A stretch of DNA of 64,000 nucleotides, taken from the NCBI GenBank assembly GCA_964035015.1, contig OZ036006.1:1745269-1809268 (forward strand), in the 5' to 3' direction. How positions within the stretch are numbered: the stretch's first letter is position 1; each line of letters starts with the position of its first letter. The DNA is from Corallium rubrum (lineage: Eukaryota > Cnidaria > Anthozoa > Scleralcyonacea > Coralliidae). The notes beneath the pieces are model-generated. The model was not told the DNA's origin. It did not search any database and saw only the letters and a list, made by a program, of their open reading frames with translations. Below are positions 12,890-60,893 of this stretch, piece by piece. The translations under genes and the position numbers were made by a program.

Positions 12890-13512
12890 AGCGGGACAAA
12901 ACCAACTCTTTATGTACAATTGTTTAGCTTAAAAGATATAATTTTCTTTGAGATGGGCCATGTAAATTTTTTTCGACATTAAAAACCACTCTTTATGTAC
13001 AATTGTTCAGCTTGAAGAAGTCTAATTTTCTTTTTGAGTTGTGCAATGTAGTATTTTCCGACGACAAAAACAACTCTTTATGTACAATTGTTTAATTTGA
13101 AGAGGTATAATTTTCTTTGAATTTTGCAATGCAGTCTTTTTCGACGACCAAAACAACTCTTTATTTTATGTACAATTGTTTAGAATGAAGAAGTATAATT
13201 TTCATTGACATAACCTTGCGCAATGTAGTCCTTTTCGACGACCAAATCTATTCTTTATGTACAATTATTTAATATGAAGAAGTATAATTTTCTTTGAGTT
13301 GTGCAATGTTGTCCTTTTCGACGACCAAAATAACTCGTTATGTACAATTGTTTAGCTTAAAAGATATAATTTTCTTTGAGATGGGCAATGTAGTTTTTTT
13401 CGACATTAAAAACCAATTGTTTAGCTTCAAGAAGTATAATTTTCTTTTTTGAGTTGAGCAATGTAGTCTATTTCGACGACCAAAACAACTTTTTATCAGC
13501 AATTGTTTAGCT
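12890..13512 (-). repeat. GPCR-tail satellite, subfamily B
   Basis: About seven tandem units of roughly 80-90 bp. Read on the minus strand each contains ctaaacaattgtacataaag, gttttggtcgtcgaaaagg, attgcacaactcaaag and tatacttcttcaag. The order and many positions match the main satellite of the window (caattgttgataatgaact, ttttggttgtcaaagaagag, tacacaacttcatga, attgcttcttcaag). The array starts immediately at the stop codon of the GPCR frame at 13513. Confidence 0.85.
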
Positions 13513-14492
13513 TCATGAAGAAGCACCAATTTCTTGGTTAAAACGGTGTGCAACTTTTCTCCCACGCCAAAAACGTTTCTTGATGTACAACATAATAATT
13601 CGTGAAAGACGAGAATGACGCAGACAGTAGATGAACGGATTAGCTGAAGATAAAATATATAGAAATGACCTCATCCATGGTTGGACATAAGAATTGAGAA
13701 TGCCATCTTTATCTAACCCTATATTTATTACCATACCCACAGTAGTAGAAGGAACGTAACACAACAGAAAAATCATCAATACCAGAAAAAATGTTATAAA
13801 CAACTTTTTCTGGCGAGCAATGTTTGCCAAGTTTTCAACACCTGCGGTACGTGTGGATATTCTGAGTTTGTAGTGGATCCTTATGTAGGCATACAGGCAA
13901 AATGTGTACGTGGAAATTACATATAAGACGCCCATGACGACAAAAAACCCTTGAAACACCATGCCTAACACTACACTGGTACAAAAAAGAAATAGAATTG
14001 TAATTATTTTCAATAGAAGTTTCTTAAATTTCTTGGTCTTGTGGTACATCGGATGAAGGACGGCAATATACCTATCAATCGTGATGCCAAATATGGCGGT
14101 AACGGAGACTGCGACTGAGAATGATGCCATACGAATCCCACCCTGAAAGAGGCTACAATACAAGCTCGTTTTAACATTCTCGGCGCTATAGGCGGTGTAG
14201 GCGTAGAGAACGACAAAAAGTAATGAAGAAAACGCGGTTAGCATATCTCCGGTCGAAAGCACGACAACTAGGATGGAGAAGATGTCTCGAAGATTCTTGT
14301 TTTTGTAAGTACATACAGCAAAAAGCTATTGAAACCGATCGAGAACAGAGCTGCCAGAGAATTGACCAAAGCCGCGAAGAATCCGTTCCAACGGTATGTC
14401 GAAATTGAGATGATTTTGCCACGCACGTCTTTGGAACAAAACCAGTTTAAATACGTCGCGTTGAGTGTGTCAGAACTGTTGATGTTCTCCAT
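13513..14492 (-). pseudogene. Class A GPCR with a 1-base frameshift after TM1
   Basis: The gene is the tandem partner of the intact receptor at 15803-16795, with near-identical protein except for a break. The N-terminal frame (14492 down to about 14300) contains NATYLNW, STYRWNGFF and the TM1 asparagine in GFNSFLLYV. The remainder (14262 down to 13513) has STGDM (TM2), YCSLFQ (TM3 cysteine), IDRYIAV, CYVP (TM6) and NPFIY (TM7). At about 14302-14308 the sequence is 7 bases shorter than its partner and, compared with the 38 kb receptor, 1 base short, so the two parts are in different frames. An in-frame ATG in TM2 could start a truncated product without TM1, unlikely to be functional. No other lesion is seen, so the break may be young, or a sequencing error. 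Confidence 0.85.
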
Positions 14493-15505
14493 AGGATCTA
14501 CTCTGAAAACACTATATCCCTACGATGGAATTACCTGTTATCTTTTAGAAGGATATCTTTTTAAATTACGATAGCTATATAATGCATACGGATCCACTAT
14601 GATCAACCCACGGGACTTAAGATCTACAATCAACCCAAGAAACTTATAAGCTTTACTCAGATAATTATAATGGTCCAGGTGCCGTTACAAAAGATTTGCC
14701 GTCACTTATAAGATGAAGGCGATATGCATATTCGGTTTTTCTTATAACCTTTTTTAAGTGGCCCTGAATTTGCACATCAACAGATAATGGTAAAATTACA
14801 CGACAAAAACTCAGTTAATTGATTAAATTAATGACCATTGCCTGGCAACGCATGCATGCATGCAATGCAGTTACGAGCGGACTAAATGAACACTTAAAAT
14901 AAAAAAGTAACATTAACAGTTTTTCGTTTCCTTGCTTCATTATCAGCTCTTTTACTTCTACAGTCGACTTTTGTTATTATACTCTGGCTACGCAAACCGA
15001 TTTTACTTCGTCAAAAAGAGAGATCTGGCAGTGAAACCGTTATAAAATCTTTAGTACTAACGTTTCGGTTACCTAATCAGTAACATTTTCAGAGTGAATA
15101 TTTACGAACATCGATGAATCGGCTGAATTAAATAGCTAAACTGTTACAAAAATAGAGAATGATGAGTTTAACATTACAGTTTAGCTATTTAATTAAGCCG
15201 ATTCATCGTTGTAAATCATTCTGAAGATGTTACTAACGAAAAACGAAATGTTAGTACTAAAGATTTTATAGATATATGATGTGTTCATTGTGGCTGGGCT
15301 ACCATATTTTAACAAGGGTTCGTTTTCCGCCTGGCTCCTCAATCGCAACAGTTATAACCCATCTTAACCTATCTCAACGCTTTCACTAACGAAGTTGACT
15401 TATATTATTATACTCTGGCTAACGGAAAATAATTTTACTTTGTCAAAGGGAGAAATCTGGCATCGGAGAAGGTTATATATCTTTCAAACAACTGATCCGA
15501 CGGTT
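14493..15505. repeat. 5' flank of the GPCR unit plus inverted retroelement ends
   Basis: About 14493-14990 is nearly the same as 16796-17290, the 5' flank of the next GPCR, showing a tandem duplication of gene plus flank. Within 15030-15275 two related ends face each other: aacgtttcggttacctaatc on one side and gattcatcgttgtaaatcat then ctgaagatgttac on the other. They are the same type as 3440-3640. No gene. Confidence 0.55.
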
Positions 15506-15802
15506 CGGATTGTACAATTGTTTGATTTGAAGAAGTATAATTTTCTTTGAGTTGTAGAATGTAGTCCTTTTCAACGAACAAAACAACTCTTTATGTACCA
15601 TTGTTTAATTTGAAGAAGTATAATGTTCTCTGAGTTGCGCAATGTAGTCTTTTTCGACGACCAAAACGATTCTTTATATACAATTGTTTAGCTTAAAAGA
15701 TATAATTTTCTTTGAGATGGGCAATGTATTTTTTTTTTGACATTAAAAACCACACTTTGTACTCTTTTTCTACGACCAAAACAACTTTTTATCAGCAATT
15801 GT
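15506..15802 (-). repeat. GPCR-tail satellite, subfamily B, short array
   Basis: Three to four units of the same 80-90 bp satellite as 12890-13512, again directly 3' of a GPCR stop codon. Confidence 0.8.
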
Positions 15803-16795
15803 TTAGCTTGATGAAGAAGCAACAATTTCTTCGTTAAAACAGTGTGCAACATTTCTCCCACGCCAAAAACGTTTCTTGACGTGCAACATAATAATTCGTG
15901 AAAGACGAGAATGACGCAGGCAGTAGATGAACGGATTAGCTGAAGATAAAATATATAGAAATGACCTCATCCATGGCTGGACATAAGAATTGAGAATGCC
16001 ATCTTTATCTAACCCTAGATTTATTACCATACCCACAGTAGTAGAAGGAACGTAACACAACAGAAAAATCATCAATACCAGAAAAAATGTTATAAATAAC
16101 TTTTTCTGACGAGCAATGTTTGCCATGTTTTCAACATCTGCGATACGTGTGGACATTCTGAGTTTGTAATGGATCCTTATGTAGGCAAAAAGGCAAAATA
16201 AAAACGTGGAAATTATACATAAGACGTACGGTACAGCAAAAAACCCTTGAAACACCGCGACTAACGCTAGACTGGCACAAAAAAGAAATAGAATTGCAAT
16301 TATCTTGACGAGAAGTTTCTTAAATTTCTTGGTCTTGTGGTACATCGGATGTAGGACGGCAATATACCTATCAATCGTGATGCCAAATATGGCGGTAACG
16401 GAGACTGCGATTGAGAGTGATGCCATACGAATCCCACCTTGAAAGAGGCTACAATACAAGCCCGTTTTAACATTCTCGGCGCTATAGGCGGTGTAGGCGT
16501 AGAGAACGACAAAAAGTAATGAAGAAAACGCGGTTAGCATGTCTCCGGTCGAAAGTACGACAACTAGGATGGAGAAGATGTCTCGAAGATTCTTGTTTTT
16601 GTAAAGTAGGCCTACATACAGCAAAAAGCTATTGAAACCGATCGAAAACAGAGCTGCCAGAGAATTGACCAAAGCCACGAAGAATCCGTTCCAACGGTAT
16701 GTCGAAATTGAGATGATTTTGCCACGCACGTCTTCGGAACAAAACCAGTTTAAATACGTCGCGTTGAGTGTGTCAGAACTGTCGATGTTCTCCAT
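15803..16795 (-). CDS. Rhodopsin-class GPCR, intact (subfamily B)
   Basis: 330-residue uninterrupted frame, intronless. N-glycosylation site NAT at 11-13; conserved STYRWNGFF before TM1; N55 in TM1; D85 in LSTGD (TM2); C115 before TM3; DRY at 142-144; CYVP at 247-250 (in place of CWxP); NPFIY at 287-291 followed by CLRHSRL. TM4 lacks the usual tryptophan and TM5 its proline, as in the related receptor at 38136-39122. Relative to that receptor it has two extra residues after TM1 (LYVGLLYKNKN versus LYVFFKNKN), an in-frame 6-base insertion. It is predicted to be a plasma membrane receptor coupling to G proteins; ligand unknown. Its tandem neighbour at 13513-14492 is frameshifted, so this is probably the working member of the pair. 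Confidence 0.92.
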   Translation of the reverse strand: MENIDSSDTLNATYLNWFCSEDVRGKIISISTYRWNGFFVALVNSLAALFSIGFNSFLLYVGLLYKNKNLRDIFSILVVVLSTGDMLTAFSSLLFVVLYAYTAYSAENVKTGLYCSLFQGGIRMASLSIAVSVTAIFGITIDRYIAVLHPMYHKTKKFKKLLVKIIAILFLFCASLALVAVFQGFFAVPYVLCIISTFLFCLFAYIRIHYKLRMSTRIADVENMANIARQKKLFITFFLVLMIFLLCYVPSTTVGMVINLGLDKDGILNSYVQPWMRSFLYILSSANPFIYCLRHSRLSRIIMLHVKKRFWRGRNVAHCFNEEIVASSSS

Positions 16796-17951: not shown

Positions 17952-17952
<1 letters not shown>

Positions 17953-17961
17953 TATTGAGTG

Positions 17962-21512: not shown

Positions 21513-21644
21513 AATCCGTTCATCTATTGCCTGCGTAATTATCGTCTCTCTCCATTGATCATGTTGCACGTGAAGGGATGTTTAGATCTCGGAGACGAAT
21601 TGCAAAACCGTAATGGCCCAGAAACTATTCCTACTTCAAGCTAG
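21513..21644 (+). pseudogene. GPCR 3' end fragment (TM7 and tail)
   Basis: An open piece starting NPFIYCLRNYRLSPLIM and ending PETIPTSS before a stop, clearly the last 43 codons of a receptor like the one at 38136-39122. The rest of the gene is absent: unrelated repeat sequence precedes it. The satellite begins right at its stop codon. Confidence 0.85.
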
Positions 21645-22085
21645 ACAATTAATCATAATTCATACAAGGTGTTTTCCATGGTTGTTCGAGAAGAACTACA
21701 CAAAGTTCATGAGAAAAAATATTGCTTCTTTAAGCCAAACAATTGTTGATAATGAACTATATTGGTTATCAAAGAAGAGCTGCACAACTTCAGGATAAAA
21801 AATATTGCTTCTTCAAGCAAAACAATTGTTGATAATGAACTATTTTGGTTGTCAAAGAAGAGCTACACAACTTCATGATAAAAAATATTGCTTCTTCAAG
21901 CCAAACAATTGTTGATAATGAACTATTTTGGTTATCAAAGAAGAGCTACACAACTTCATGATAAAAAAATTTTGCTTCTTCAAGCCAAACAATTGTTGAT
22001 AATGAACTATTTTGGTTGTCAAAGAAGAGCTACACAACTTCATGATAAAAAAATATTGCTTTCTATGAGCAGAACAGTTGTACAT
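21645..22085 (+). repeat. GPCR-tail satellite, about 5 monomers
   Basis: Begins in the tail of the GPCR fragment with a diverged first unit (ggttgttcgagaagaactac), then regular units of about 84 bp: caattgttgataatgaact, ttttggttgtcaaagaagag, tacacaacttcatga, attgcttcttcaag. Copy B is at 52111-52545. Confidence 0.9.
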
Positions 22086-22287
22086 ATATAGAGTTAGGAG
22101 CTGTTCTGGACAAGAAAATATAGGTTTTGTTAGTTTTCTCACTTTAACTACTTATACGACAGTATATCAGCAAAAACAACGGAAACTATAACAAGGGTTT
22201 TTTCAGTTTAAAACTTATCTTGAATACACTATTATCGCAATGCAAACTTTCAAAGAATTAAGTATTTGAGTTTGTTTGATATGTATA
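22086..22287. other. Non-coding linker
   Basis: AT-rich sequence with no supported feature. Confidence 0.3.
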
Positions 22288-25105: not shown

Positions 25106-26098
25106 ATGGATTACATAAATACTTCGCACACACTCGAGAAGACGTACTTAAATTGGTATTGTTCCGATGAGATACGTGACAAAATCATCTCAACTTCGTC
25201 GTACCGTTGGAACGGATTCTTCGTGGCTTTGGTCACCTTTCTGGCAGCTTCGTTTTCGATCGGTTTCAACAGCCTGGTGCTGTACGTGTTTTTCAAAAAC
25301 AAGAACCTTCGCAATGTTTCTCACATCCTAGCTGTAATGCTATCGACTGGGGACATGCTCACCGCTTTTAATTCGGTGCTTTCGGTGGCTCTACTCGGCT
25401 ACAGCGCTTACAGTGTGGAGAACCTAAAAGGGGGCTTGTATTGTCGTCTCTTACAGACTTGGATAATCATATCATTAATTTCAGTCTCAGTCTCCGTGAC
25501 AACCATATTTGGAATTGCTCTCGACAGATACATCCCCGTCGTTTATCTAGCGTACTACAAGACCAAGCAGTCAAAAAAAGTTATCTTTACGGCAATGAGC
25601 GGAATTCTATTTCTTTTTGCTCTCAACATGGTGCTAGGAAAATCAGTTCATGAGGTTTTTATAGCAACTTATTTGTTAATTATGTTTTCATCTTACATCT
25701 TACATCTTTTGCCTTTTTGCATACATAAAGATCCACTACAGACTCAGAAAGTCCACGCGTATTGCAGGTGTTGAACATTTAGCAACCATTGCTCGCCAAA
25801 AAAAGATGTTTGTGACGTCTGTCTTGGTATTGGTGGTATTTCTATTCTGTTACTTTCCCGCCAGTGTTATGGGTGCAGTATTAAGAATGCGAAAGGTAGG
25901 AATGAAATTATCCAGAACTATATCCGGCCGTGGCTACGCTCATTTTTCTATATTTCATCTTCAGCTAATCCGTTCATCTATTGCCTGCGTAATTCTCGTC
26001 TTTCTCCATTGATCATGCTGCACGTGAAGAGATGTTTTACATCTCAGAGAAGAATTACACACCGTTATGACCCAGAAACCGTGCCTAATTCAAGCTAG
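25106..26098 (+). pseudogene. Class A GPCR pseudogene (subfamily A, copy A first gene)
   Basis: Starts MDYINTSHTL and reads through TM1 (FNSLVLYVFFKNKNLRN), TM2 (LSTGD), the TM3 cysteine, an intact DRY (followed by P instead of A) and TM5. A 7-base tandem duplication of ttacatc near 25693 then shifts the frame. A second lesion, a 1-base deletion near 25893 after CYFP-type TM6, shifts it again, so TM7 (NPFIY) lies in another frame. The second lesion is also in the copy B gene at 55608, the first is not; thus the deletion is older than the duplication and the 7-base repeat is younger. Its original stop is at 26096-26098, in the same PETVPNSS context as its relatives. Confidence 0.9.
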
Positions 26099-26528
26099 AC
26101 GATTACTCATAATTCACAAAATGTGTTTTTCATGGTTGTTCGAGAAGTACTACGCAAATTAAAATATATTTCTACTTCAAGCAAAACAATTGTTGATAAT
26201 GAACTGTATTTTTTTATATTGGTAATAGACAATGGTGTATATTAGTATCTAATGTCTCATGTTGAATTTATAATTAAGGAATGTAGTAATAAACGGTTCT
26301 TTGTTTGTGCCGTTTATTATCTGATTTCTTAATTATGAATTCAGTTTGCGCGAACTTCAACGGGTTTTAAAACCCATACACATGACTACATATTTTTCTC
26401 TGAGAAGTTAAATTAATGAAGTGTATATGTAACGCTGTCTTAATTAACATTGATTGATGATGATGTACATTATATTGAAAGTCATAAGCACATATATCAA
26501 TGGTTGTTCATTAGGATCGCCAGTATTC
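26099..26528. other. GPCR unit linker with one satellite monomer
   Basis: After the stop codon comes a single diverged satellite unit (26098-26210: ggttgttcgagaagtactac, caattgttgataatgaactg). It is followed by the upstream block of the next GPCR with its short MITE (26270-26345). Confidence 0.6.
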
Positions 26529-26670: not shown

Positions 26671-27648
26671 ATAAAGTACATAAATAGTTCGCACACACTC
26701 GACAAGACGTACTGAAACTGGTATTGTTCCGATGAGATACGTGACAAAATCATCTCAACTTCGACGTACCGTTGGAACGGATTCTTCGTGGCTTTGGTCA
26801 ACTTTTTGGCAGCTTCGTTTTCAATCGGTTTCAACAGCCTGGTGCTGTATGTGTTTTTCAAAAACAAGAACCTTCGCAATATTTCTCACATCCTAGCCAT
26901 AATGCTATCGACTGGGGACAAGCTCACCGCTTTTTCTTCGCTGGTTTCGGTGGCTATACACGGCTACAGCGCTTACAGTGTGGAGAACCTAAAAGGGGGC
27001 TTGTATTATCGCCTCTTACAGACTTGGATAATCATGTCATTAACTTCGGTCGCAGTCTCCGTCACAACCATATTTGGAATTGCTCTCGACAGATACATCG
27101 CCGTCGTTTATCTAGCGTACTACAAGACCAAGCAGTCGAAAAAAGTTATCTTTACGGCAATGAGCGGAATTCTATTGCTCTCAACATGGCGCTACGGGGA
27201 AAATCAGTTCATGAGGTTTTTATAGCAACTTATTTGTTAGTTAAGTTTTCATCTTATATCTTTTGCCTTTTTGCGTACATAAAGATCCACTACAGATTCA
27301 GAATGTCCACGCGTGTCGCAAGTGTTGAACATTTAGCAACCATTGCTCGCCAAAAAAAGATGTTTGTGACGTCTGTCATGGTATTGGTGGTATTTCTGTT
27401 CTGTTATTTTCCCGCCAGTGTTGTGGGTGCAGTAATAACAATGCGAAAAGATAGGAATAATATTATCCAGAACTATATCCAGCCGTGGCTACGCTCGTTT
27501 TTCTATGTTTCATCTTCGGCTAAATCCGCTCATCTATTGCCTGCGTAATTCTCGTCTTTCTCCATTGATCATGCTGCACGTGAGGAGATGTTTTAGATGT
27601 CAGAGAAGAATTGCACACCGTGATGACCCAGAAACTGTTCCTATTTAA
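26671..27648 (+). pseudogene. Class A GPCR pseudogene (subfamily A, copy A second gene)
   Basis: The start codon is ATA instead of ATG (26671-26673) and codon 15 is TGA (26713-26715). The body is recognisable: STYRWNGFF, TM1 FNSLVLYVFF, LSTGDK, IALDRYIAVVYL, then a net frame change near 27180-27200 (7 bases lost, 3 gained), FCYFPASVVG in TM6, and a 1-base insertion just before NPFIY (aaatcc for aatcc near 27520). The final codons are cut by insertion of a short repeat at 27646, which supplies a TAA. At least five lesions, most shared with 57166-58145. An internal ATG at 26788 would give only a 145-residue fragment. Confidence 0.9.
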
Positions 27649-29904: not shown

Positions 29905-29938
<34 letters not shown>

Positions 29939-38110: not shown

Positions 38111-38135
38111 CATTTTGTGAATTATGAGTAATCGT

Positions 38136-39590: not shown

Positions 39591-39624
39591 GCGTGACTAC
39601 AACTACCAGAATGCTTTGCCGATA

Positions 39625-41201: not shown

Positions 41202-42254
41202 CATGATAAAAAATATAACTTCTTCAAGCAAAACAATGGTTGATAATGAACTATACTATTTGGTTGTCAAAGAAGAGTTATTCAATTCATGAACAAAAAT
41301 ATTGGTTCTTCAAGCAAAACAATTGTTGATAATGAACTATTTTGGTTGTCAAAGAAGAGCTACACAACTTCATGATAAAAAAATATTGCTTCTTCAAGAA
41401 AACCAATTGTCAAAAAAGAGGTATACAAGTTCATGGCCAAAAAAGTATTGCTTCTTCAAGCAAAACAATTGTTGATAATAAACTATTTTGGTTGTCAAAG
41501 AAAACCTATACAAGTTCATGATGAAAAAATATTACTTCTCAAGCAAAACAATTCTTGATAATGAACTATTTTGGTTGTCAAAGAAGAACTACACAACTTC
41601 ATGATAAAAAAATATCGCTTCTTCAAGCAAAACAATTGTTGATTATGAACTACTTTGGTTGTCAAGGAAGAGCTACACAACTTCATGATAAAAAAATATT
41701 GGTTCTCAAGCAAAACAATTGATAATGAACTATTTTGGTTGTCAAAGAAGAGCTACACAACTTCATGATAAAAAAATATCGCTTCTTCAAGCAAAACAAT
41801 TGTTGATTATGAACTACTTTGGTTGTCAAGGAAGAGCTACACAACTTCATGATAAAAAAATATTGGTTCTCAAGCAAAACAATTGATAATGAACTATTTT
41901 GGTTGTCAAAGAAGAGCTACACAACTTCATGATAAAAAAATATCGCTTCTTCAAGCAAAACAATTGTTGATTATGAACTACTTTGGTTGTCAAGGAAGAG
42001 CTACACAACTTCATGATAAAAAAATATTGGTTCTCAAGCAAAACAATTGATTATGAACTACTTTGGTTGTCAAAGAAGAGCTATACAACTTCATGATAAA
42101 AAAATATTGCTTCTTGAAGCAAAACAATTGTTGATAATGAACTATTCTTTTGTCAAAGAAGAGCTACACAACTTCATGATAAAAAAATATTGGTTCTCAA
42201 GCAAAACAATTGTTGATAATGAACTATTTTGGATGTCAAAGAAGAGCTACACAA
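41202..42254 (+). repeat. GPCR-tail satellite with a 164 bp dimer repeat
   Basis: About 12.5 units. From about 41540 to 42050 a two-monomer unit of 164 bases is repeated three times with virtually no differences (a short monomer aaaacaattgataatgaac alternates with one carrying ggttgtcaaggaagag), implying very recent local amplification. Confidence 0.9.
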
Positions 42255-42956
42255 CTTAAGGTCTTCGTTAAGGTTTGCAGGGTCATTTCTGTAAAGCGCT
42301 CTCAATTTGTCAGAATTGATGCCACAAAAATAAAATAGATATCGTTAGAAAGCTATGAATTTGTAGAATGCAATGGTGTCTTTGGTTTCGCGATAAACAC
42401 AAACCGTTAATAGTTGTGAATTTTTTAATTAAAACCAGAGGCTTCACTCGGGGCGACTTAAGAACAAAGCGTTTCATTTTGTTCAAAAAAATTTTTCGTA
42501 GTTCGATTCCGAGATAAATGTTCAGCCAAACGGTGTCAGCCTTTTTTAATATGTCGAGTTTTGCCGATTTTATTGACGACAAAAGTTAAAAATGCTGTTT
42601 TTCGACCAACATTCGGACAAAATAAGTCATAAATTCGAAACCAGGCAATAAATAAAAAAACGCTGACACCGTTTTGCTGAACATTTGTCTCGGAATCAAA
42701 CTGCGAAAAAATTTTTTCAACAAAATGAAACGCTTTGTTCTTAAGTACTAGTCGCCCTGAGTGAAGAAGCACTCTGGTTTTAATTAAAAACTTCACAACT
42801 ATTAACGGTTTGTGTTCATCGCGAAACCAAAGACACCATTGTATTCTGCAAATTCATTGCTTTCTAACAATATGTATTTTATTTTTGTGGAATAAATTCA
42901 GACGAATTGAGAGCGCTTTACAGAAATGACCCTGCAAACCTTAACGAAGACCTCAA
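42255..42956. mobile_element. Fold-back element FB1, copy 2
   Basis: Left TTAA 42255-42258, right TCAA 42953-42956 (one base changed). 694 bases, same arms as copy 1. Its satellite flanks are the same as those of copy 3, including private variants, so copies 2 and 3 were duplicated together with their flanks. Confidence 0.85.
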
Positions 42957-43217
42957 TTCATGATAAAAAATATAGCTTCTTCAAGCAAAACAATGGTTGA
43001 TAATGAACTATACTATTTGGTTGTCAAAGAAAAGTTATACAATTCATGATCAAAAATATTGCTTCTTCAAGCAAAACAATTGTTGATAATGAATTATTTT
43101 GTTTGTCGAAGAAGAGCTACACAACTTCATGATAAAAAAATATTGCTTCTTGAAGCAAAACAATTGTTGATAATGAACTATTCTGTTGTCAAAGAAGAGC
43201 TACACAACTTCATGATA
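42957..43217 (+). repeat. GPCR-tail satellite
   Basis: About three units, with the private variants aaagaaaagttatac and gaattattttgtttgtc that recur at 45600-45760. Confidence 0.9.
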
Positions 43218-43584
43218 AAACAAAAGGTCCGCTATGCGTACATGTATCTGCGCAAACCCACCACTGTGAGAATCATGTCAAGATCTTGTGTGATCTTGGA
43301 AAATCTTGTAAGATCTTAAGAAAAATCTTATAAGATTTTAGCGATATCTTATAAGATAATTAAAGAGAAAGTACACGTTCTCTGACCTTAATAATTTTTT
43401 ATCATGACTCATCATTACTCACAAAAACTGTGGTAGATCACACTCACAAGTTTACTATAAGTCACGTTAAAAATACTTAACCAGTTTATCAGCAATATCC
43501 CCTGTCTCCGAAATGTTTTTGTGCAAAACTTTGTCGGAAATATAGAATTTAACGGCTAACTGCTGGAAGATATATCCAAATGGC
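43218..43584. other. Non-coding, AGATCTT-rich
   Basis: 43270-43365 has clustered palindromes agatctt, gatcttgt, atcttataagat. The rest is unassigned. Confidence 0.4.
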
Positions 43585-44792: not shown

Positions 44793-44829
44793 CACGATAG
44801 CAATATATCTGCGCGTTGCGCAGATACAA

Positions 44830-44900
44830 AAATATTGGTTCTCAAGCAAAACAATTGTTGATAATGAACTATTTTGGATGTCAAAGTAGAGCTACACAAC
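44830..44900 (+). repeat. GPCR-tail satellite, single unit
   Basis: One unit (ggttctcaagcaaaacaatt to gctacacaac) leading to the TTAA of FB1 copy 3. Confidence 0.85.
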
Positions 44901-45599
44901 TTAAGGTCTTCATTAAGGTTTGCAGGGTCATTTCTGTAAAGCGCTCTCAATTTGTCAGAATTGATGCCACAAAAATAAAATAGATATCGTTAGAAAGCTA
45001 TGAATTTGTAGGATGCAATGATGTCTTTGGTTTCGCGATAAACACACACCGTTAATAGTTGGGAATTTTTTTATTAAAACCAGAGGGCTTCACTCGGGGC
45101 GACTTAAGAACAAAGCGTTTCATTTTGTTCAAAAAAATTTTTCGTAGTTCGATTCCGAGATAAATGTTCAGCCAAACAGTGTCAGCGTTTTTTAATATGT
45201 CGAGTTTTGCCGATTTTATTGACGACAAAAGTTAAAAATGCTGTTTTTCGACCAACATTCGGACAAAATAAGTCATAAATTCGAAACCAGGCAATAAATA
45301 AAAAAACGCAGACACCGTTTTGCTGAACATTTGTCTCGGAATCAAACTGCGAAAAAAATTTTTCAACAAAATGAAACGCTTTGTTCTTAAGTACTAGTCG
45401 CCCTGAGTGAAGCACTCTGGTTTTAATTAAAAACTTCACAACTATTAACGGTTTGTGTTCATCGCGAAACCAAAGACACCATTGTATTCTGCAAATTCAT
45501 TGCTTTCTAACAATATGTATTTTATTTTTGTGGAATAAATTCAGACGAATTGAGAGCGCTTTACAGAAATGACCCTGCAAACCTTAACGAAGACCTCAA
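44901..45599. mobile_element. Fold-back element FB1, copy 3
   Basis: Left TTAA 44901-44904, right TCAA 45596-45599, the same altered base as copy 2. 691 bases. Confidence 0.85.
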
Positions 45600-46094
45600 T
45601 TCATGATAAAAAATATAGCTTCTTCAAGCAAAACAATGGTTGATAATGAACTATACTATTTGGTTGTCAAAGAAAAGTTATACAATTCATGATCAAAAAT
45701 ATTGCTTCTTCAAGCAAAACAATTGTTGATAATGAATTATTTTGTTTGTCAAAGAAGAGCTACACAACTTCATGATAAAAAAATATTGCTTCTTCAAGCA
45801 AAACAATTGTCAAAAAAGAGGTATACAAGTTCATGGCCAAAAAAGTATTGCTTCTTCAAGCAAAACAATTGTTGATAATAAAGTATTTTGGTTGTCAAAG
45901 AAGAGCTATACAAGTTCATGATCAAAAAATATTACTCTCAAGCAAAACAATTGTTGATAATGAAGTACATTGGTTGTCAAAGAAGAGCTACACAACTTCA
46001 TGATAAAAAAAAATATTGCTTCTTCAAGCAAAACAATGGTTGATTGTGAACTATACTATTTGGTTGTTAAAGAATAACTATACAGTTCGTGATC
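45600..46094 (+). repeat. GPCR-tail satellite
   Basis: About six units ending at the boundary module. The beginning matches 42957-43120. Confidence 0.9.
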
Positions 46095-46397: not shown

Positions 46398-46598
46398 TGT
46401 TAGACATATATATTATGACTAAAAAATATTGCTTCTTCAAGCAAAACAATTGTACAAATACACGATATTTGAGGTCTCGAAGAGTTAGAAATTGTTGTCC
46501 CACGGGCCAAAAACCCGGAGCCCGGTGAGGGTGCTAATCTCGACACGCGTGGAGTACACGCGAAATTACACGCAAGTGGGAAAGAAATTCTGCGAGAT

Positions 46599-47810: not shown

Positions 47811-49908
47811 CTAGTTTAATTCTTTAAGATAAACAAATTTTTGTATATAAGTAGGTGGTACATAAAGAAAGGTTTGGGGCCTCAGGTGAAAAGTTACAAA
47901 TATTATATGGCCAAGAAGTTATTGCTTCATCAAAATAAACAATTGTACATAAAAAGGTGTTTTAGTTTGCATATGGAACTTGCGCATGCATGGCCAAGCT
48001 CTCAGATACAGTTGCCGTAACTAAGGCCGTGTTTACATGAAGCGGATTGAGTGTTCAGGTCAAATATCGCATATTGTTTCTCCTTGTGTTTACATGAAGA
48101 AGATTGAAAGCTTTCGATTTGATCGAAACGGATGGCTGAAGTGGAGTGGATTGACTTGAGATTCAAGCAAGAATGGGCTTGAATATCTCCAATCTGATTC
48201 ATCTAAACACGGTTTGACTTGAAAATGACTTGATACGCATGAGTGAAGTTAGTGCGTGTCGTGCTAAACGGCAGACATTGTGGCAAGCATAGAAAATAGT
48301 GTTACAAAACCGAAAACAAAGTTCCGAGCGTATCGGATTCTTCCTGTGCCCGACCATCTTAATGATCGGAAGCATAGCTTATGTCGTGCACTTTAATCAT
48401 GAGCCTCTGGCTCGGATGATTGGGCCACCACATCCTGTGTTTATCGACGTTAAATAAGTCATTACTCATTTACTCATTACTCATTACTCAAGAATCGGAA
48501 TTCTTTCTATTTCGAAAACGCATCATCGACGCTCGCCGACGATGTGGGATTCTTACGACTAGTTATACGATATGTGTGAACACTGAAAAACACTGAAACT
48601 ACTCTCTGGGACAATCGGGGACAGGAAAAATCCCCAATTCTTACGATTCTTACGGCAAGACACAACAAGTGTGAACGTGAGCTGGCTGTCGTGAGAATCG
48701 CCGACAATCGGGAATAGAACCAGTGGCGTAGCCAGGGTCTTGAATTTGGGGGGGGGGGGGGGGGCAAGAACAGCGATCACCTAGGGGGTCTGGGGGCATG
48801 TCCCCGGAAAATTTTGGATTTCTAGCGTCTCTGAAACACTATTTCCTGCATTTTGAGGCAAGTATTTAAGGGTAATCTGAAAGCCAGACATTTCGTCGAA
48901 ATCAAACCAGAACGTAGAATACGACGTCAGAATATCTTTAGATTTATTTATAAACAAGTCGAGTATAGCATATGCATGCCTGCAATATATATAACACATT
49001 ACTTGTCTACTCACTTGGCCTTAAAACAATGTAACACCCACCTCCCACCGCCTACAAGTTTCTCAACGGAGCCACTGTATAGAATTGTCCCCGTTAATCT
49101 TACGACAAGTGAGAACTAGGCTTAAACTCATTATTTTCCGATCTCTGTCCTTGAATTTATCGGAGAGGTTTTCGAAAGCTCTGGAAAACTTCTTGAATTT
49201 GATGTTTTCTGAAGGGTAGGCAACTTTAATTAAACGACTATATTCGAATCTATACCTGCGCCTTCAACGACTAAGGCCCTATTTACATGAAGCGGATTGA
49301 CAGTGTATATAATCGGATCGAAAAATGCGAGTGAAGTAAATCCGGGCACGTCATGTTTACAAGGAAAAATCCCCGATTCTTATGCCAAATGAGAACCAGG
49401 CTTTAACAACTTAGGACAGCTTGTACAGCAAAAGCAAACGAAACTTGACCAACTTCAAGCTGAAAGTACTATACTAGAACGTAGAATTGTGGTCCATTTG
49501 ACAATTTAAAGCAAATACACCTAGAGTAAATGAACAAATTTGTAATGAAATACCTGTCTAAAGATGATCAAATTTAAATTCATGTTAGTAGAATGATACC
49601 AAGTAATTCACCAGGTCAAATATTGCTGCGATGATTTTATGTTGACTTTGTCTATATTCAGCACAAAGATGTTCTTCTATTCAGAATTTCGACATTCGAT
49701 AATAAACAAATAAAAAAATAAAACAAAATAATGAGTGGTGTGATATTCATAATTTCGGCGTTCTAGAAATATTTAGATACATACTTTAATATATTTTTAT
49801 TTTGCTTACCTTTACTATGTCCAAGGAATACATTTTTCAAGATGGACGTTTTGTTGAAGCAGAACCGATTTTGAGTATTTCAGTTCCAAATATTTATTGA
49901 CCAATTCC
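47811..49908 (-). repeat. Inverted 2 kb duplication, right arm
   Basis: Reverse complement partner of 35673-37690, with about 110 extra bases at 48375-48490 (ending in repeated ctcattactcattac) and a poly-G run at about 48749-48764. No gene. Confidence 0.85.
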
Positions 49909-51978: not shown

Positions 51979-52110
51979 AATCCGTTCATCTATTGCCTGC
52001 GTAATTATCGTCTCTCTCCATTGATCATGTTGCACGTGAAGGGATGTTTAGATCTCGGAGACGAATTGCAAAACCGTAATGGCCCAGAAACTATTCCTAC
52101 TTCAAACTAG
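51979..52110 (+). pseudogene. GPCR 3' end fragment (copy B)
   Basis: Equivalent of 21513-21644: NPFIYCLRNYRLSPLIM to PETIPTSN and stop. One substitution changes the final serine to asparagine. Confidence 0.85.
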
Positions 52111-52545
52111 ACAATTAATCATAATTCATACAAGGTGTTTTCCATGGTTGTTCGAGAAGAACTACACAAAGTTCATGAGAAAAAATATTGCTTCTTTAAG
52201 CCAAACAATTGTTGATAATGAACTATATTGGTTATCAAAGAAGAGCTGCACAACTTCAGGATAAAAAAATATTGCTTCTTCAAGCAAAACAATTGTTGAT
52301 AATGAACTATTTTGGTTGTCAAAGAAGAGCTACACAACTTCATGAGAAAAAATATTGCTTCTTCAAGCCAAACAATTGTTGATAATGAACTATTTTGGTT
52401 ATCAAAGAAGAGCTACACAACTTCATGATAAAAAAATATTGCTTCTTCAAGCCAAACAATTGTTGATAATGAACTATTTTGGTTGTCAAAGAAGAGCTAC
52501 ACAACTTCATGATAAAAAAATATTGCTTTCTATGAGCAGAACAGT
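52111..52545 (+). repeat. GPCR-tail satellite (copy B)
   Basis: About five units, equivalent of 21645-22085. Confidence 0.9.
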
Positions 52546-54109
52546 TGTACATATATAGAGTTAGGAGCTGTTCTGGACAAGAAAACATAGGTTTTGTTAG
52601 TTTTCTCACTTTAACTACTTATACGACAGTATATCAGCAAAAACAACGGAAACTATAACAAACTTCAGGCTAAAAACACTATACTAACGTATTTCAGGTT
52701 TTTTTCAGTTTAAAACTTATCTTGAATACACTATTATCGCAATGCAAACTTTCAAAGAATTAAGTATTTGAGTTTGTTTGATATGTATAGGTAATAGCAT
52801 GGTTTCGAGTGCAATTTGGAAAAAACATGCACGAGTGAGTTTTTCAGATTATCAAAATTGCACGAGTCCGAAGGACGAGTGCTATTTGAGGTCTTTGAAA
52901 AACTCACGAGTGCGTGTTTTCTTCAAATTGCACGAGAAATCATGCTATTACTTATTAATAATATACATGAAAAAATTTATCATAAAGAGAATCTTTCGAA
53001 TCAAAATGCTTTGTTCAAATAACATACATGAAAAAAAATAATTAACGGGAAGAGCTTTTTTTTCTATTAAAAAATGATTTTTGTGCAAATTTAAAAAATT
53101 ACAAAATTTGCACTATTTCATTTTTCTGCACTGCATTACACTAAAATTGCACTCCTCTCAGCCAATCAGAATTGAGAAATTTTTTCATATATATTATTAG
53201 CAAATGAAACATCTTGACCTGACATATACATCATGAGTTACCGGAGAAAGTTACATATCGTTCCTATTATCAAACCAAATTAATTCGAAGGAAGTATGTA
53301 GGTGTATTTTTCTCACAACACCAAGCATCTATATATTTTCAAGTAATTATGTAATGATAATAGCAAAGATACTGCAATTTTCGGTTGAGCATGGACCCGG
53401 AAAATTTTGAAAACTTTGAATATTGAAACGCATACGTCACCAGGGACAATTTAAGATGTTATCAAGGGCAAATTTAAAGTTTGGGTAACGCCTTAATTTC
53501 TATTGGTCAAAATGCTCAAACATTCAAATTTCCCATGGGCACCGTGTAAAAATTGTGAAACGATCAAACTTTTCAATAAAATTCCGGTCATTAAGCACAA
53601 CTGAAAATCGCAGTACATAACTTTCTCCAATAACTCATTATGCACTTGCGACGTCAAGATATTTAATTAGCATATTAAACAAACTGAAATATCACAACAA
53701 CAAAGCAAGGAAATAAGAAACTCTAAAAGATGTTACTCTGTCGTTTAAGGAGTTCTTACAAATAAGACCGACTGAATTTTCGCCTCATAGACACTTGTAG
53801 ATGATAGATGTATAGGTTATGAAATGAAAATGATGTGCAATTGGGGGACGCTTCATCGCTTGGGGACGACAACATAATTGTCATGCATGAGTGAGCGCAG
53901 CAAATGAGGGATAATTATGATATCGTTCTGAAAGTGATAAAACTAATATCACTTGTGCTTTTATCAAGACAGCGGGTGATAAAAATAATACGTCCCAAAG
54001 TCCTGGGATATACCGTTTTTATCATCCGCTGTTATCACCCTGATAAAGGAATAAGTATGTAATAAATATAGTTAACGATATGCAGGACTTGTTAAGTAAT
54101 ATTTCATAA
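52546..54109. repeat. MITE cluster (copy B)
   Basis: Equivalent of 22086-23600. cgtgca-family MITE at 52790-52955, aatatacatga MITE at 52955-53205, 0.6 kb fold-back at 53205-53810, tatcac MITE at 53840-54065. About 35 extra bases near 52665 (aacttcaggctaaaaacact...) are absent from copy A. No gene. Confidence 0.65.
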
Positions 54110-55607: not shown

Positions 55608-56593
55608 ATGGATTACATAAATACTTCGCACACACTCGAGAAGACGTACTTAAATTGGTATTGTTCTGACGATATGCGTGGCGAAATCATCTCAACTTCG
55701 TCGTACCGTTGGAACGGATTCTTCGTGGCTTTGGTCACCTTTCTGGCAGCTTCGTTTTCGATCGGTTTCAACAGCCTGGTGCTGTACGTGTTTTTCAAAA
55801 ACAAGAACCTTCGCAATGTTTCTCACATCCTAGCTGTAATGCTATCGACTGGGGACATGCTCACCGCTTTTAATTCGGTGCTTTCGGTGGCTCTACTCGG
55901 CTACAGCGCTTACAGTGTGGAGAACCTAAAAGGGGGCTTGTATTGTCGTCTCTTACAGACTTGGATAATCATATCATTAATTTCAGTCTCAGTCTCCGTG
56001 ACAACCATATTTGGAATTGCTCTCGACAGATACATCCCCGTCGTTTATCTAGCGTACTACAAGACCAAGCAGTCAAAAAAAGTTATCTTTACGGCAATGA
56101 GCGGAATTCTATTTCTTTTTGCTCTCAACATGGTGCTAGGAAAATCAGTTCATGAGGTTTTTATAGCAACTTATTTGTTAATTATGTTTTCATCTTACAT
56201 CTTTTCCCTTTTTGCATACATAAAGATCCACTACAGACTCAGAAAGTCCACGCGTATTGCAGGTGTTGAACATTTAGCAACCATTGCTCGCCAAAAAAAG
56301 ATGTTTGTGACGTCTGTCTTGGTATTGGTGGTATTTCTATTCTGTTACTTTCCCCCCAGTGTTGTGGGTGCAGTATTAAGAATGCGAAAGGTAGGAATGA
56401 AATTATCCAGAACTATATCCGGCCGTGGCTACGCTCGTTTTTCTATATTTCATCTTCAGCTAATCCGTTCATCTATTGCCTGCGTAATTCTCGTCTTTCT
56501 CCATTGATCATGCTGCACGTGAAGAGATGTTTTACATCTCAGAGAAGAATTACACACCGTTATGACCCAGAAACCGTGCCTAATTCAAGCTAG
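55608..56593 (+). pseudogene. Class A GPCR pseudogene (copy B first gene)
   Basis: Open for 299 codons from ATG through TM6: FNSLVLYVFF, LSTGD, the TM3 cysteine, DRY, and FCYFPPSVVG. A 1-base deletion near 56390 (cgaaaggta where the intact 38 kb gene has cgaaaagata) shifts the frame, so the ORF ends without NPFIY and the original tail up to 56593 is out of frame. It lacks the 7-base duplication of its partner at 25106. The stretch encoding CSDDMRGEI differs from its partner (CSDEIRDKI) by six bases in 27, far above the surrounding divergence. A six-helix product could be made but would lack the TM7 activation motif. Confidence 0.9.
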
Positions 56594-57023
56594 ACGATTA
56601 CTCGTCATTCACAAAATGTGTTTTTCATGGTTGTTCGAGAAGTACTACGCAAATTAAAATATATTGCTACTTCAAGCAAAACAATTGTTGATAATGAACT
56701 ATATTTTTTTATATTGGTAATAGACAATGGTGTATATTAGTATCTAATGTCTCATGTTGAATTTATAATTAAGGAATGTAGTAATAAACGGTTCTTTGTT
56801 TGTGCCGTTTATTATCTGATTTCTTAATTATGAATTCAGTTTGCGCGAACTTCAACGGGTTTTAAAACCCATACACATGACTACATATTTTTCTCTGAGA
56901 AGTTAAATTAATGAAGTGTATATGTAACGCTGTCTTAATTAACATTGATTGATGATGATGTACATTATATTGAAAGTCATAAGCACATATATCAATGGTT
57001 GTTCATTAGGATCGCCAGTATTC

Positions 57024-57165: not shown

Positions 57166-58145
57166 ATAAAGTACATAAATAGTTCGCACACATTCGACAA
57201 GACGTATATTGAAACTGGTATTGTTCCGACGAGATACGTGACAAAATCATCTCAACTTCGACGTACCGTTGGAACGGATTCTTCGTGGCTTTGGTCAACT
57301 TTTTGGCAGCTTCGTTTTCAATCGGTTTCAACAGCCTGGTGCTGTATGTGTTTTTCAAAAACAAAAACCTTCGCAATATTTCTCACATCCTAGCCATAAT
57401 GCTATCGACTGGGGACAAGCTCACCGCTTTTTCTTCGCTGGTTTCGGTGGCTATACACGGCTACAGCGCTTACAGTGTGGAGAACCTAAAAGGGGGCTTG
57501 TATTATCGCCTCTTACAGACTTGGATAATCATGTCATTAACTTCGGTCGCAGTCTCCGTCACAACCATATTTGGAATTGCTCTCGACAGATACATCGCCG
57601 TCGTTTATCTAGCGTACTACAAGACCAAGCAGTCGAAAAAAGTTATCTTTACGGCAATGAGCGGAATTCTATTGCTCTCAACATGGCGCTACGGGGAAAA
57701 TCAGTTCATGAGGTTTTTATAGCAACTTATTTGTTAGTTAAGTTTTCATCTTATATCTTTTGCCTTTTTGCGTACATAAAGATCCACTACAGATTCAGAA
57801 TGTCCACGCGTGTCGCAAGTGTTGAACATTTAGCAACCATTGCTCGCCAAAAAAAGATGTTTGTGACATCTGTCTTGGTATTGGTGGTATTTCTGTTCTG
57901 TTATTTTCCCGCCAGTGTTGTGGGTGCAGTAATAACAATGCGAAAAGATAGGAATAATATTATCCAGAACTATATCCAGCCGTGGCTACGCTCGTTTTTC
58001 TATGTTTCATCTTCGGCTAAATCCGCTCATCTATTGCCTGCGTAATTCTCGTCTTTCTCCATTGATCATGCTGCACGTGAGGAGATGTTTTAGATCTCAG
58101 AGAAGAATTGCACACCGTGATGACCCAGAAACTGTTCCTATTTAA
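57166..58145 (+). pseudogene. Class A GPCR pseudogene (copy B second gene)
   Basis: Equivalent of 26671-27648. Start codon ATA (57166-57168), the same mid-gene frame lesions (near 57675-57695) and the same extra base before NPFIY (near 58017). Codon 15 is not TGA here; instead two extra bases (gtatattgaa for gtactgaa) shift the early frame. The tail is interrupted by the same short repeat at 58143. Shared lesions show that the gene was already dead before the duplication. Confidence 0.9.
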
Positions 58146-58408
58146 CAAATAGATTCCATTTTGCCGTTGTCTGTTCAGTTATAGATGCACAGATGACGTC
58201 ACAACGTGGTAAGAACAAAAAAGTGGCCCACGAGACGCAGTCGAGAACAATATAAAAATTACACACTACTTCTTGCCGGATTTGGGGGCATGAAGAAAGA
58301 AAAAAGCAAGTCAGCCGACATGATCTGACGTGATCCATGTGTCTGTCCTCTAACAGACCATGGGCAACAACCAATGAAAACACGCATAGCAACCAGGGTA
58401 TTGTATAA
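58146..58408 (+). mobile_element. Short repeat in the GPCR tail, uninterrupted (Harbinger empty site)
   Basis: Same as 27648-27726 joined to 31819-32004. The point corresponding to the Harbinger insertion is 58223/58224 (aaaaaag/tggccc). Confidence 0.75.
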
Positions 58409-60893
58409 ATCAAGCTAGACGATTACTCATAATTCACAAAATGTGTTTTCATGGTTGTTCGAGAAGTACCACACAAATTAAAATATATTGCTTCTTTAAG
58501 CAAAACAATTGTTGATAATGAACTATTTGGTTGTCAAAAACGAGGTATACAAGTTCATGGCCAAAAAAGTATCGCTTCTTCAAGCAAAACAATTGTTGAT
58601 AATAAACTATTTTGGTTGTCAAAGAGGAGCTACACAGCTTCAAGATCAAAAAATATTGCTTCTCAAGCAAAACAATTGTTGATTATGAACTATACTTCGG
58701 TTGTCAAAGAAGAGCTATACAACTTCATGATAAAAAAATATTGGTTCCCAAGCAAAACAATTGTTGATAATGAACTATTTTGGATGTCCAAGAAGAGCTA
58801 CACAACTTAATTCATGATAAAAAATATAGCTTCTTCAAGCAAAACAATGGTTGATAATGAAATATACTACTTGATTCTCAAAGAAGGGCTATACAATTCA
58901 TGATAAAAAATATTGCTTCTTCAGGCAAAACAATTGTTAATAATGAACTATTTTGGTTGTCAAAGAAGAGCTACACAACTTCATGATTAAAAAATATTGC
59001 TTCTTCAAGCAAAACAATTGTCAAAAAAGAGGTATACAAGTTCATGGCCAAAAAATTATTGCTTCTTCAAGCAAAACAATTGTTGCAACGAACTATTTTG
59101 GTTGTCAAAGAAGAGCTACACAACTTCATGAAAAAAAATATAGCTTCTTCAAGCAAAAAAATGGTTGATAATGAACTACACTATTTGGTTGTCAAAGAAG
59201 AGCTATACAATTCATGATCAAAAATATTGTTTCTTCACGCAAAACAATTGTTGATAATGAACTATTTTGGTTGTCACAGAAGAGTTACACAACTTCATGA
59301 TAAAAAATATAGACTCTTCAAGCAAAACAATTGTTGACAATAAACTATTTTGGTTGTCAAAGAAGAGCTATACAATTTCATGATCAAAAAATATTGCTTC
59401 TCAAGCAAAACAATTGTTGATTATGAACTACTTCGGTTGTCAAAGAAGAACTATACAAGTTCATGGTCAAAAAATATTGGTTCTCAAGCAAAACAATTGC
59501 TGATAATGAACGATTTTGGATGTCAAAGAAGAGCTACACAACTTAATTCATGATAAAAAATATAGCTTCTTCAAGAAAAACAATGGTTGACAATGAACTA
59601 TACTGTTTGGTTGTCAAAGAAGAGCTATTCAATTCATGATCAAAAATATTGCTTCTTCACGCAAAACAATTGTTGATAATGAACTATTTTGGTTGTCACA
59701 GAAGAGTTACACAACTTCATGATAAAAAAATATTGCTTCTAAAGCAAAACAATTGTTGATTATGAACTACTTTGGTTGTCAAAGAATTAAGAGCTACACA
59801 ACTTCATGATAAAAAATATAGATTCTTCAAGCAAAACAATTGTTGATAATAAACTATTTTGGTTGTCAAAGAAGAGCTATACAATTTCATGATCAAAAAA
59901 TATTGCTTCTCAAGCAAAACAATTGTTGATTATGAACTATACTTCGGTTGTCAAAGAAGAGCTATACAAGTTCATGGTCAAAAAATATTGGTTCTCAAGC
60001 AAAACAATTGTTGATAATGAACTATTTTGGATGTCAAAGAAGAGCTATACAAGTTCATGGTCAAAAAATATTGGTTCTCAAGCAAAACAATTGTTGATAA
60101 TGAACGATTTTGGATGTCAAGAAGAGCTACACAACTTAATTCATGATAAAAAATATAGCTTCTTCAAGCAAAACAATGGTTGATAATGAACTATACTGTT
60201 TGGTTGTCAAAGAAGAGCTATTCAATTCATGATCAAAAATATTGCTTCTTCAGGCAAAACAATTGTTAATAATGAACTATTTTGGTTGTCAAAGAAGAGC
60301 TACACAACTTCACGATTAAAAAATATTGCTTCTTCAAGCAAAACAATTGTCAAAAAAGAGGTATACAAGTTCATGGCCAAAAAATTATTGCTTCTTCAAG
60401 CAAAACAATTGTTGCAACGAACTATTTTGGTTGACAAAGAAGAGCTACACAACTTCATGATAAAAAATATAGCTTCTTGCAAGCAAAACAATGTTTGATA
60501 ATGAACTACACTATTTGGTTGTCAAAGAAGAGCTATACAATTCATGATCAAAAATATTGTTTCTTCAAGCAAAACAATTGTTGATAATGAACTATTTTGG
60601 TTGTGACAGAAGAGTTACACAACTTCATGATAAAAAAATATTGCTTCTCAAGCAAAACAATTGTTGATTATGAACTACTTTGGTTGTCAAATAATTAAGA
60701 GCTACACAATTTCATGATCAAAAAATATTGCAATTCTTCAAGCAAAACAATTGTTGATTATGAACTATTTTGGATGTCAAAAAGAGCTACACAACTTCAT
60801 GATAAAAAAATATAGCTTCTTCAAACAAAACAATGGTTGATTATGAACTATACTATTTGGTTGTCAAAGAAGAACTATACAATTCATGATCAA
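58409..60893 (+). repeat. GPCR-tail satellite, main array (copy B), about 29 monomers
   Basis: Equivalent of 32005-35245 but about 755 bases shorter. The same variants appear (tatagactcttcaag near 59308, tatagattcttcaag near 59817; cacaacttaattcatg near 58802, 59537 and 60131). An open frame of 119 codons at 58451 is a by-product of the 84 bp period. Confidence 0.95.

What the first reader, a model, noticed from the sequence alone, without database searches (positions are those of the whole stretch)
12890..60893. A satellite that grows out of the 3' end of GPCR genes
Seen: the 84 bp satellite starts in the last codons of the GPCR genes. The CDS end cttcaagctagacgatt aligns with the monomer junction cttcaagcaaaacaatt, and the following tggttgttcgagaag aligns with tggttgtcaaagaag. 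It occurs 3' of the subfamily A members (21644, 26098, 32005, 38136, 52110, 56593, 58409) and, as a diverged version, 3' of both subfamily B members (13513, 15803). Inference: the terminal codons and 3' UTR of an ancestral GPCR are the founding monomer, carried along by gene duplication and amplified repeatedly. A satellite born from a receptor gene end is unusual and may affect 3' end formation or recombination in the cluster.
Basis: partly seen in the sequence, partly recalled or inferred. Interest (0 to 1): 0.75.

Follow-up and report, generated by a model that had tools for sequence, protein, structure and literature searches.

The report
Local satellite copied from receptor ends
In a cluster of duplicated receptor genes, the last 26 to 27 codons of the receptor seem to have been copied head to tail behind the gene until they formed a small satellite found only there, which gives a readable case of how a tandem repeat is born from a gene.

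Summary
An 83-84 bp tandem repeat follows the rhodopsin-type GPCR copies of this cluster, in subfamilies A and B. In searches of the 474 Mb assembly, every match to the A unit (101), the B unit (9) and a relic unit (6) lies in one 98.6 kb stretch of contig C25.

The monomer is not "terminal codons plus 3' UTR". Aligned back from the stop, similarity runs into the coding sequence for 61-81 nt in 13 of 14 comparisons, 72-81 nt in 10 of them, into helix 8. None of seven distant paralogs shows a clear unit at its 3' end, and four of them align ungapped into the founder's first codons, so gene to satellite is favoured.

Relic units near A arrays resemble the coding tail. Trees favour one founding before the A/B split but do not reject two. 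Some arrays changed length after segmental duplication. No function is shown. Only 4 of 11 near-full-length copies are open frames.

The parts
15806..15886 (-). Founder segment in the intact B receptor (B2): last 27 codons, helix 8 end and C-tail; stop codon at 15803-15805
   Evidence: anchored extension 81 nt into CDS vs B consensus, 68 nt vs A consensus
13510..13590 (-). Same segment in B1 (frame broken upstream); includes B1's own early stop at 13513-13515 and the three bases after it
   Evidence: 81 nt vs both A and B consensus
38139..38216 (-). Founder segment in intact A receptor A2 (26 codons)
   Evidence: 72 nt vs A, 77 nt vs B consensus
26018..26095 (+). Founder segment in A1 (internal stop in the CDS)
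   Evidence: 61 nt vs A, 77 nt vs B consensus
56513..56590 (+). Founder segment in A3 (frame broken)
21564..21641 (+). Founder segment in T1, a 3'-terminal receptor fragment
   Evidence: 80 nt vs A, 105 nt vs B consensus
52030..52107 (+). Founder segment in T2, segmental duplicate of T1
27574..27642 (+). Truncated founder segment in decayed copy P1 (last codons missing; bounds approximate)
58071..58139 (+). Truncated founder segment in decayed copy P2 (last codons missing; bounds approximate)
12897..13572 (-). B-type array behind B1 (includes part of the gene tail as unit 0)
15511..15864 (-). B-type array behind B2 (includes part of the gene tail)
21679..22084 (+). A-type array behind T1
26132..26204 (+). 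Single A-type unit behind A1
32047..35275 (+). Largest A-type array (37 units over 60 nt), belongs to P1, displaced by a transposon-sized insertion
37773..38199 (-). A-type array behind A2 (includes part of the gene tail)
37548..37624 (-). Relic unit about 150 bp beyond the distal edge of the A2 array, close to the coding tail
   Evidence: combined HMM (built partly from gene tails) E 3.3e-8; 72% over 82 nt to the B1 CDS end, E 0.005
47877..47953 (+). Relic unit about 1.4 kb 3' of the last orphan array piece
   Evidence: combined HMM E 1.4e-6
39617..40019 (+). Orphan A-type array, first piece (no receptor remnant found 5' of it)
41189..42261 (+). Orphan array, second piece, split from the first by two TTAA-flanked MITEs
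42946..43225 (+). Orphan array, third piece
44827..44906 (+). Orphan array fragment
45589..46050 (+). Orphan array, further piece
46420..46453 (+). Orphan array fragment
52145..52551 (+). A-type array behind T2
56627..56699 (+). Single A-type unit behind A3
58451..60926 (+). A-type array of P2 (28 units over 60 nt)

Best explanation
A tandem duplication copied the last 26-27 codons of an ancestral rhodopsin-type receptor (the end of helix 8 and the C-tail), its stop codon and a few following bases, and set the copy directly behind the gene. The gene still ends at its own stop, so the copies were free to drift. Unequal exchange inside the young repeat grew and shrank it into arrays of 83-84 bp units, and gene and segmental duplication carried gene plus array around the cluster. 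No copy was found outside the cluster. Shown: homology between coding tail and monomer, its approximate 5' limit in helix 8, restriction of detectable copies to the cluster, unit-number differences between segmental duplicates. Inferred: the direction gene to satellite, one founding before the A/B split (about 0.7 likely given the direction), and unequal exchange as the growth process. No function is shown; the most likely effect on the genes is simply a repetitive 3' flank. The stated confidence is for a coding receptor end as the source, whether founded once or twice.
For: A monomer HMM without any CDS-overlapping unit hits 14 of 14 CDS ends, 10 above the inclusion threshold; in the printed alignments (A4, A2, P1, A1, A3) the register agrees. 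Extension back from the stop reaches 61-81 nt in 13 of 14 comparisons (105 in T1 vs B), with 0-6 of 200 shuffles as good. Cross-family matches stop at nearly the same place: A1, A2, A4 and A6 vs B units 77 nt, B1 vs A units 81 nt (B2 vs A units 68). The founder's first codons align ungapped with helix 8 of four paralogs whose 3' flanks show no clear unit. Relic units resemble the coding tail and branch between gene tails and other units, UFBoot 90-91. Units were found only in the cluster: 101 + 9 + 6 matches. In 3 of 7 groups of duplicated arrays unit numbers differ: 37/28/23, 5/4, 12/5; identical units occur at lags 6, 7 and 13.
Against: The 5' limit is soft: in several extensions (B1 vs A or B, B2 vs A) the score dips after 80 nt and partly recovers near 100 nt before falling. 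Single founding is not forced: the AU test does not reject independent foundings (p 0.174; 0.124 and 0.371). B copies hit weakly with the A HMM (E 0.039, 0.15), and the B-unit HMM lists no B copy at E 1 and only weak A or P hits (best 0.13), those to A1, A3 and A5 out of register. Several free local alignments are weak: A6 vs A 37 of 300 shuffles, B2 vs B 19, P1 vs B 39, T1 vs B 14, B1 vs A 13; other windows of the same CDS do as well for B2 vs B (5 of 65), A6 vs B (5 of 64) and P1 vs B (15 of 63). Gene tails show no third-position excess. In 4 of 7 groups duplicated arrays kept equal unit numbers. No close outgroup, other species or RNA data.
Confidence: 0.85

Rival explanations
1. Reverse direction: the satellite came first, landed behind or inside the receptor gene, and the receptor took its C-tail from it.
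For: The C-tail beyond helix 8 has no clear counterpart in the paralogs, and gene tails show no third-position excess.
Against: The homology includes helix 8 codons that align ungapped with four receptors lacking a clear unit. Local matches ending within the first 40 nt (B1 vs B units) or 21 nt (A2, A4 vs B units) of the tail beat shuffles (0, 1 and 0 of 300 as good), though the synonymous-codon null is weaker (5, 22 and 14 of 200). No array was found outside the cluster.
Confidence: 0.07
2. Gene to satellite, but founded twice, once in A and once in B, from homologous ends. (Same direction and source as the best explanation, so the odds overlap.)
For: AU tests do not reject it (p 0.124-0.371); A units and B units form separate clades.
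Against: Nearly the same limit in helix 8 for A and B and across families; units of A and B group together against gene tails at UFBoot 93; B-like relic units in A loci.
Confidence: 0.25
3. One reading: terminal codons plus 3' UTR are the founding monomer.
For: The bases after the stop do match the monomer.
Against: Those bases are unit 1; nearly the whole monomer is already accounted for by the coding end.
Confidence: 0.05
4. The unit belongs to a transposon or is an unrelated minisatellite that only happens to lie there.
For: Transposons and MITEs occur in and around the arrays.
Against: No copy found outside the cluster in 474 Mb; coding homology at the gene ends.
Confidence: 0.03

Closest known systems
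rDNA-spacer-derived satellites, such as that of tomato (PMC2679016, abstract and outline seen)
   Same: A defined genomic sequence seeds a tandem repeat that is then amplified and homogenised by recombination.
   Different: There the seed is a non-coding spacer of an already tandem locus; here it is the coding end of a protein gene and it stayed in its cluster.
Satellites seeded by transposons, including LTR-retrotransposon 3' UTRs (review PMC5615363, passages seen; Macas et al. 2009 seen only in its reference list)
   Same: A part of a transcription unit as the source of a satellite.
   Different: The source here is a cellular receptor gene and the part is coding.
Beta satellites in the human KRAB zinc-finger cluster on 19p12 (recalled; only a search listing seen)
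   Same: Satellite arrays interspersed with a tandemly duplicated gene family.
   Different: As recalled, that satellite is not derived from the zinc-finger genes.
Macrosatellites that contain genes, such as D4Z4/DUX4 (recalled; only titles and abstract starts seen)
   Same: Tandem repeat containing coding-derived sequence.
   Different: As recalled, the unit there holds a whole ORF and is kilobases long; here it is an 83-84 bp fragment that cannot stay in frame.

Membership tests
Satellite / minisatellite DNA | Head-to-tail tandem units of a constant period | tested here: met
   83-84 bp, 26 arrays, 206 units
Satellite / minisatellite DNA | Homogenisation and copy number turnover | tested here: met
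   identical units at lags 6, 7 and 13; unit counts differ in 3 of 7 groups of duplicated arrays
Classical satellite DNA | Long arrays, many loci or heterochromatic blocks | tested here: not met
   15.1 kb in all, one 98.6 kb cluster; so a local, minisatellite-sized repeat. Heterochromatin not testable.
Gene-derived tandem repeat | Homology to coding sequence beyond chance | tested here: met
   free local alignments mixed
Gene-derived tandem repeat | Direction shown by a repeat-free close ortholog | not testable with these tools
   no relatives held; only distant paralogs
Rhodopsin-type (class A) GPCR | 7tm_1 profile match | tested here: met
   E 3e-16 (B2), 1e-22 (A2)
Transposon-borne satellite | Copies at dispersed sites | tested here: not met
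   0 matches outside the cluster in word-based DNA searches
Known structured RNA | Match to an Rfam family | tested here: not met
   0 matches in the window at gathering score

The most novel reading that the evidence does not exclude
A receptor gene seeded its own recombination and 3'-end substrate: the copied coding tail became an array that supplies poly(A) signals to the same genes and promotes unequal exchange between gene copies, so the cluster's growth feeds on a repeat made from its own genes. In A2, A4 and A6 the first AATAAA after the stop, at 189-200 nt, falls within the array behind the gene, but I tested this against no null and AT-rich DNA makes it likely by chance; and the outer edges of the large duplications do not lie in arrays.
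Probability: 0.08. Interest if true: 0.8.

Novelty: new variant of a known kind. Interest (0 to 1): 0.5.

Why it matters
Where a satellite came from is often hard to tell, because the seed is erased. Here seed, relic units and grown arrays sit side by side, and the seed is mostly coding sequence of a receptor, so its bounds can be read approximately (about 26-27 codons from helix 8 to the stop). With orthologs from related species this would date the founding duplication and test directly whether a tandem repeat behind a gene helps the gene family expand.

Tried and rejected
Founder in terminal codons plus UTR: rejected because the UTR part is unit 1. Segmental duplication edges as evidence that arrays drive duplication: (pieces of at least 1500 bp and 88% identity) 25 of 60 piece ends lie within 50 bp of an array, but ends inside arrays are expected wherever unit numbers differ; the outer edges (for example 95607, 126094, 163474, 102995, 133492 in region coordinates) lie outside arrays, and one edge of the 37 kb duplication (110706) lies 163 bp beyond an array. 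Poly(A) signals: AATAAA in 16 of 154 A units and 1 of 11 B units over 60 nt, no null run. Coding constraint by codon position: no third-position excess. A remnant receptor 5' of the orphan arrays: none among the listed best hits. The C25:4401237 fragment as an outgroup: it is an internal piece of a B-like CDS without the C-terminal end. Known RNA: none. A profile search of the genome with a model of the unit: not accepted for this genome. RNA-seq and other species: not available.

Dropped rows: one search left out every unit overlapping a CDS or stop and units not spanning consensus positions 5 to 70 (151 A units, 92 distinct, and 10 B units kept of 206). One search used 24 randomly drawn A units of 78-90 nt plus 4 first units, 8 B units of at least 78 nt plus 1 first unit, and 6 of the 11 gene tails cut. 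One search added 4 of 5 relics. One search tested 7 of 14 ends against 2 consensuses, one search tested 8 of 14. One search aligned 5 of 7 outgroups. P1-P3 were left out of the anchored extension because their last codons are missing; A3, A5, T2 and T3 as near copies of ends tested.
Full report
Setting. The window is C25:1745269-1809268 of a 474 Mb assembly in 312 contigs. I fetched the flanks and worked on C25:1670001-1925000. Receptors A2 and B2 match Pfam 7tm_1; A2's best matches among solved structures are peptide receptors at E about 1e-8, too weak to name a ligand.

The genes. The region has two B copies, six A copies, three decayed A-like copies (P1-P3) and three fragments with only the last ~54 codons (T1-T3), 14 ends in all. 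Eleven copies are full length or nearly so; by the stops reported and the split frames, four are open and unbroken: B2, A2, A4 and A6.

The repeat. TRF gives periods of 83-84 bp, with longer ones such as 422 bp. Wraparound alignment gives 206 units in 26 arrays, 15.1 kb, partial and some gene-tail units included, spanning C25:1758165-1856767. In the largest array mean identity between units is 0.82-0.88 at every lag from 1 to 15, highest at lags 7 and 13, with some identical pairs at lags 6, 7 and 13, so blocks of several units were copied together, though not as a regular higher-order repeat.

Where it occurs. The A unit gave 101 matches (24 of 24 first-look candidates scored), the B unit 9 (3 of 3), a relic unit 6 (6 of 6); every one lies in this cluster.

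Coding homology. Taking only coding sequence, stops removed, an HMM built from units that overlap no CDS hits the end of all 14 copies; in A4 the match covers model positions 3-62 and ends on the last codon. E-values run from 4.4e-5 to 0.15; 10 of 14 pass the inclusion threshold, and A6, T2, B2 and B1 do not. The B-unit HMM (10 units) lists no B copy at E 1 and five weak A or P hits (best 0.13), those to A1, A3 and A5 out of register. I therefore ran a second test: fix the alignment at the bases before the stop and extend upstream (in B1 at the bases after its early stop). The similarity continues for 61-81 nt in 13 of 14 comparisons, 72-81 nt in 10, and 105 in T1 against B units. In the 14 comparisons (7 ends, 2 consensuses) 0-6 of 200 dinucleotide shuffles did as well, and 0 of 24 overlapping stretches taken from just upstream in the same gene. 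Free local alignment is less uniform (8 ends, 2 consensuses): A2 and A4 against A units 0 of 300 shuffles and 0 of 200 synonymous recodings, B1 against B units 0 of 300 and 5 of 200, but A6 against A units 37 of 300, B2 against B units 19 of 300 and P1 against B units 39 of 300; in three comparisons against B units (B2, A6, P1) other windows of the same CDS did as well.

What was copied. The best extension stops near one codon 77-81 nt before the stop, also across families: A1, A2, A4 and A6 against B units 77 nt, B1 against A units 81 nt, though B2 against A units stops at 68. The limit is not sharp: in several cases the score partly recovers near 100 nt before it falls. So the founder held about 26-27 codons, the stop and a few bases, which with small later deletions gives 83-84 bp.

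Direction. Seven paralogs from elsewhere in the genome were fetched, at about 24-31% identity to A or B. Five were aligned: L033-L036 run without gaps from the NPxxY region to the end of helix 8, where the founder begins; L031 ends before it. L030 and L032 were left out because runs of asparagine, glutamine or threonine fill their C-termini. In the seven, with about 1 kb or more of 3' flank each, the unit HMMs gave two hits below E 1, both weak: L035 (E 0.42, opposite strand) and L033 (E 0.84, about 110 nt past the stop, 21 nt long). So the founder's first codons existed as receptor coding sequence without a recognisable satellite. This makes gene to satellite much the likelier direction, but the rest of the C-tail has no clear counterpart, so the reverse is not excluded.

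One founding or two. A tree of 6 gene tails, 28 A units and 9 B units puts the units together against gene tails (UFBoot 93). Five relic units lie in the cluster (window 37548-37624 and 47877-47953; three more outside the window), three of them 107-153 bp beyond an array and two about 1.4-1.5 kb beyond. Three of the five match the B1 coding end at about 72% over 81-82 nt, E 0.005; the stronger HMM E-values (1.4e-6 to 1.8e-8) come from a model that includes gene tails. The relic query also matches a B array unit (90% over 40 nt). Four relics added to the tree fall between tails and other units (UFBoot 90-91). B-like relics in A loci favour one founding before A and B split. The AU test rejects neither view.

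Later history. Segmental duplications of about 95-99% identity copied genes and arrays together. Unit numbers then differ in 3 of 7 groups of corresponding arrays (37/28/23 in the P arrays, 5/4 in A2/A4, 12/5 in one orphan piece) and agree in 4. The 12/5 case is not clean, because the five-unit array corresponds to parts of two arrays in the other copy. Mobile elements broke arrays up: an insertion of about 4.09 kb spanning a Harbinger-type ORF separates P1 from its array, and its flanks overlap by 3 bases, as recalled for the target duplication of that group; two TTAA-flanked MITEs split the orphan array, and the joined flanks read as unit sequence.

How it works. Most likely it is a by-product: a duplication past the stop does no harm to the protein, so it could persist and grow. 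A period of 83-84 is not kept a multiple of three, so the array is unlikely to encode a repeated peptide. A role in 3' end formation or in recombination remains possible and is not supported by what I could test.

Literature. Satellites from rDNA spacers and from transposons are known (PMC5615363, passages; PMC2679016, abstract and outline). Seven searches that ran listed no title on a satellite seeded by the coding end of a receptor gene; two searches returned nothing, asked about something else, I opened three papers only, and the library lacks most subscription journals, so this is no proof of novelty. PMC8210747 was seen as abstract and outline and bears only on old, short satellite arrays.

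Wording and counts were mended (paralog alignment, inclusion threshold, array groups, relic distances, soft 5' limit, P1/P2 bounds).

Noticed in passing
window 28457-31369: Harbinger-type pair: a Myb/SANT-like ORF (+) and a DDE_Tnp_4 transposase ORF (-), within an insertion of about 4.09 kb present in P1 but not in P2 or P3.
   Followed up: partly
window 40016-41201: Two adjacent palindromic TTAA-flanked MITEs inserted into the orphan satellite array.
   Followed up: partly
L029 (C25:4399500-4403500), 1760-2045: A lone internal fragment of the B receptor, 95.5% identical to B1 over 289 aligned positions, 2.6 Mb from the cluster.
   Followed up: partly
window 6884-7882: A further, different rhodopsin-type receptor beside the cluster with an open frame and no satellite hit near it.
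   Followed up: no
window 41189-43225 and its duplicate at region 153591-154099: Two orphan array pieces with 685 bp between them correspond to a single array in the segmental duplicate, either by deletion between arrays or by an insertion.
   Followed up: no
window 43653-44582: A tandem repeat of 212 bp (also seen at period 424) among the orphan array pieces.
   Followed up: no
window 47126-47481 and 61138-61728: Short-period tandem repeats (14-34 bp periods reported in the first, 23-25 bp in the second) with partly palindromic units.
   Followed up: no
window 22263-22500: A dispersed repeat of about 220 bp, 93-97% identical at places on other contigs (query positions about 764-1001; 40 of 1779 candidates scored).
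   Followed up: no
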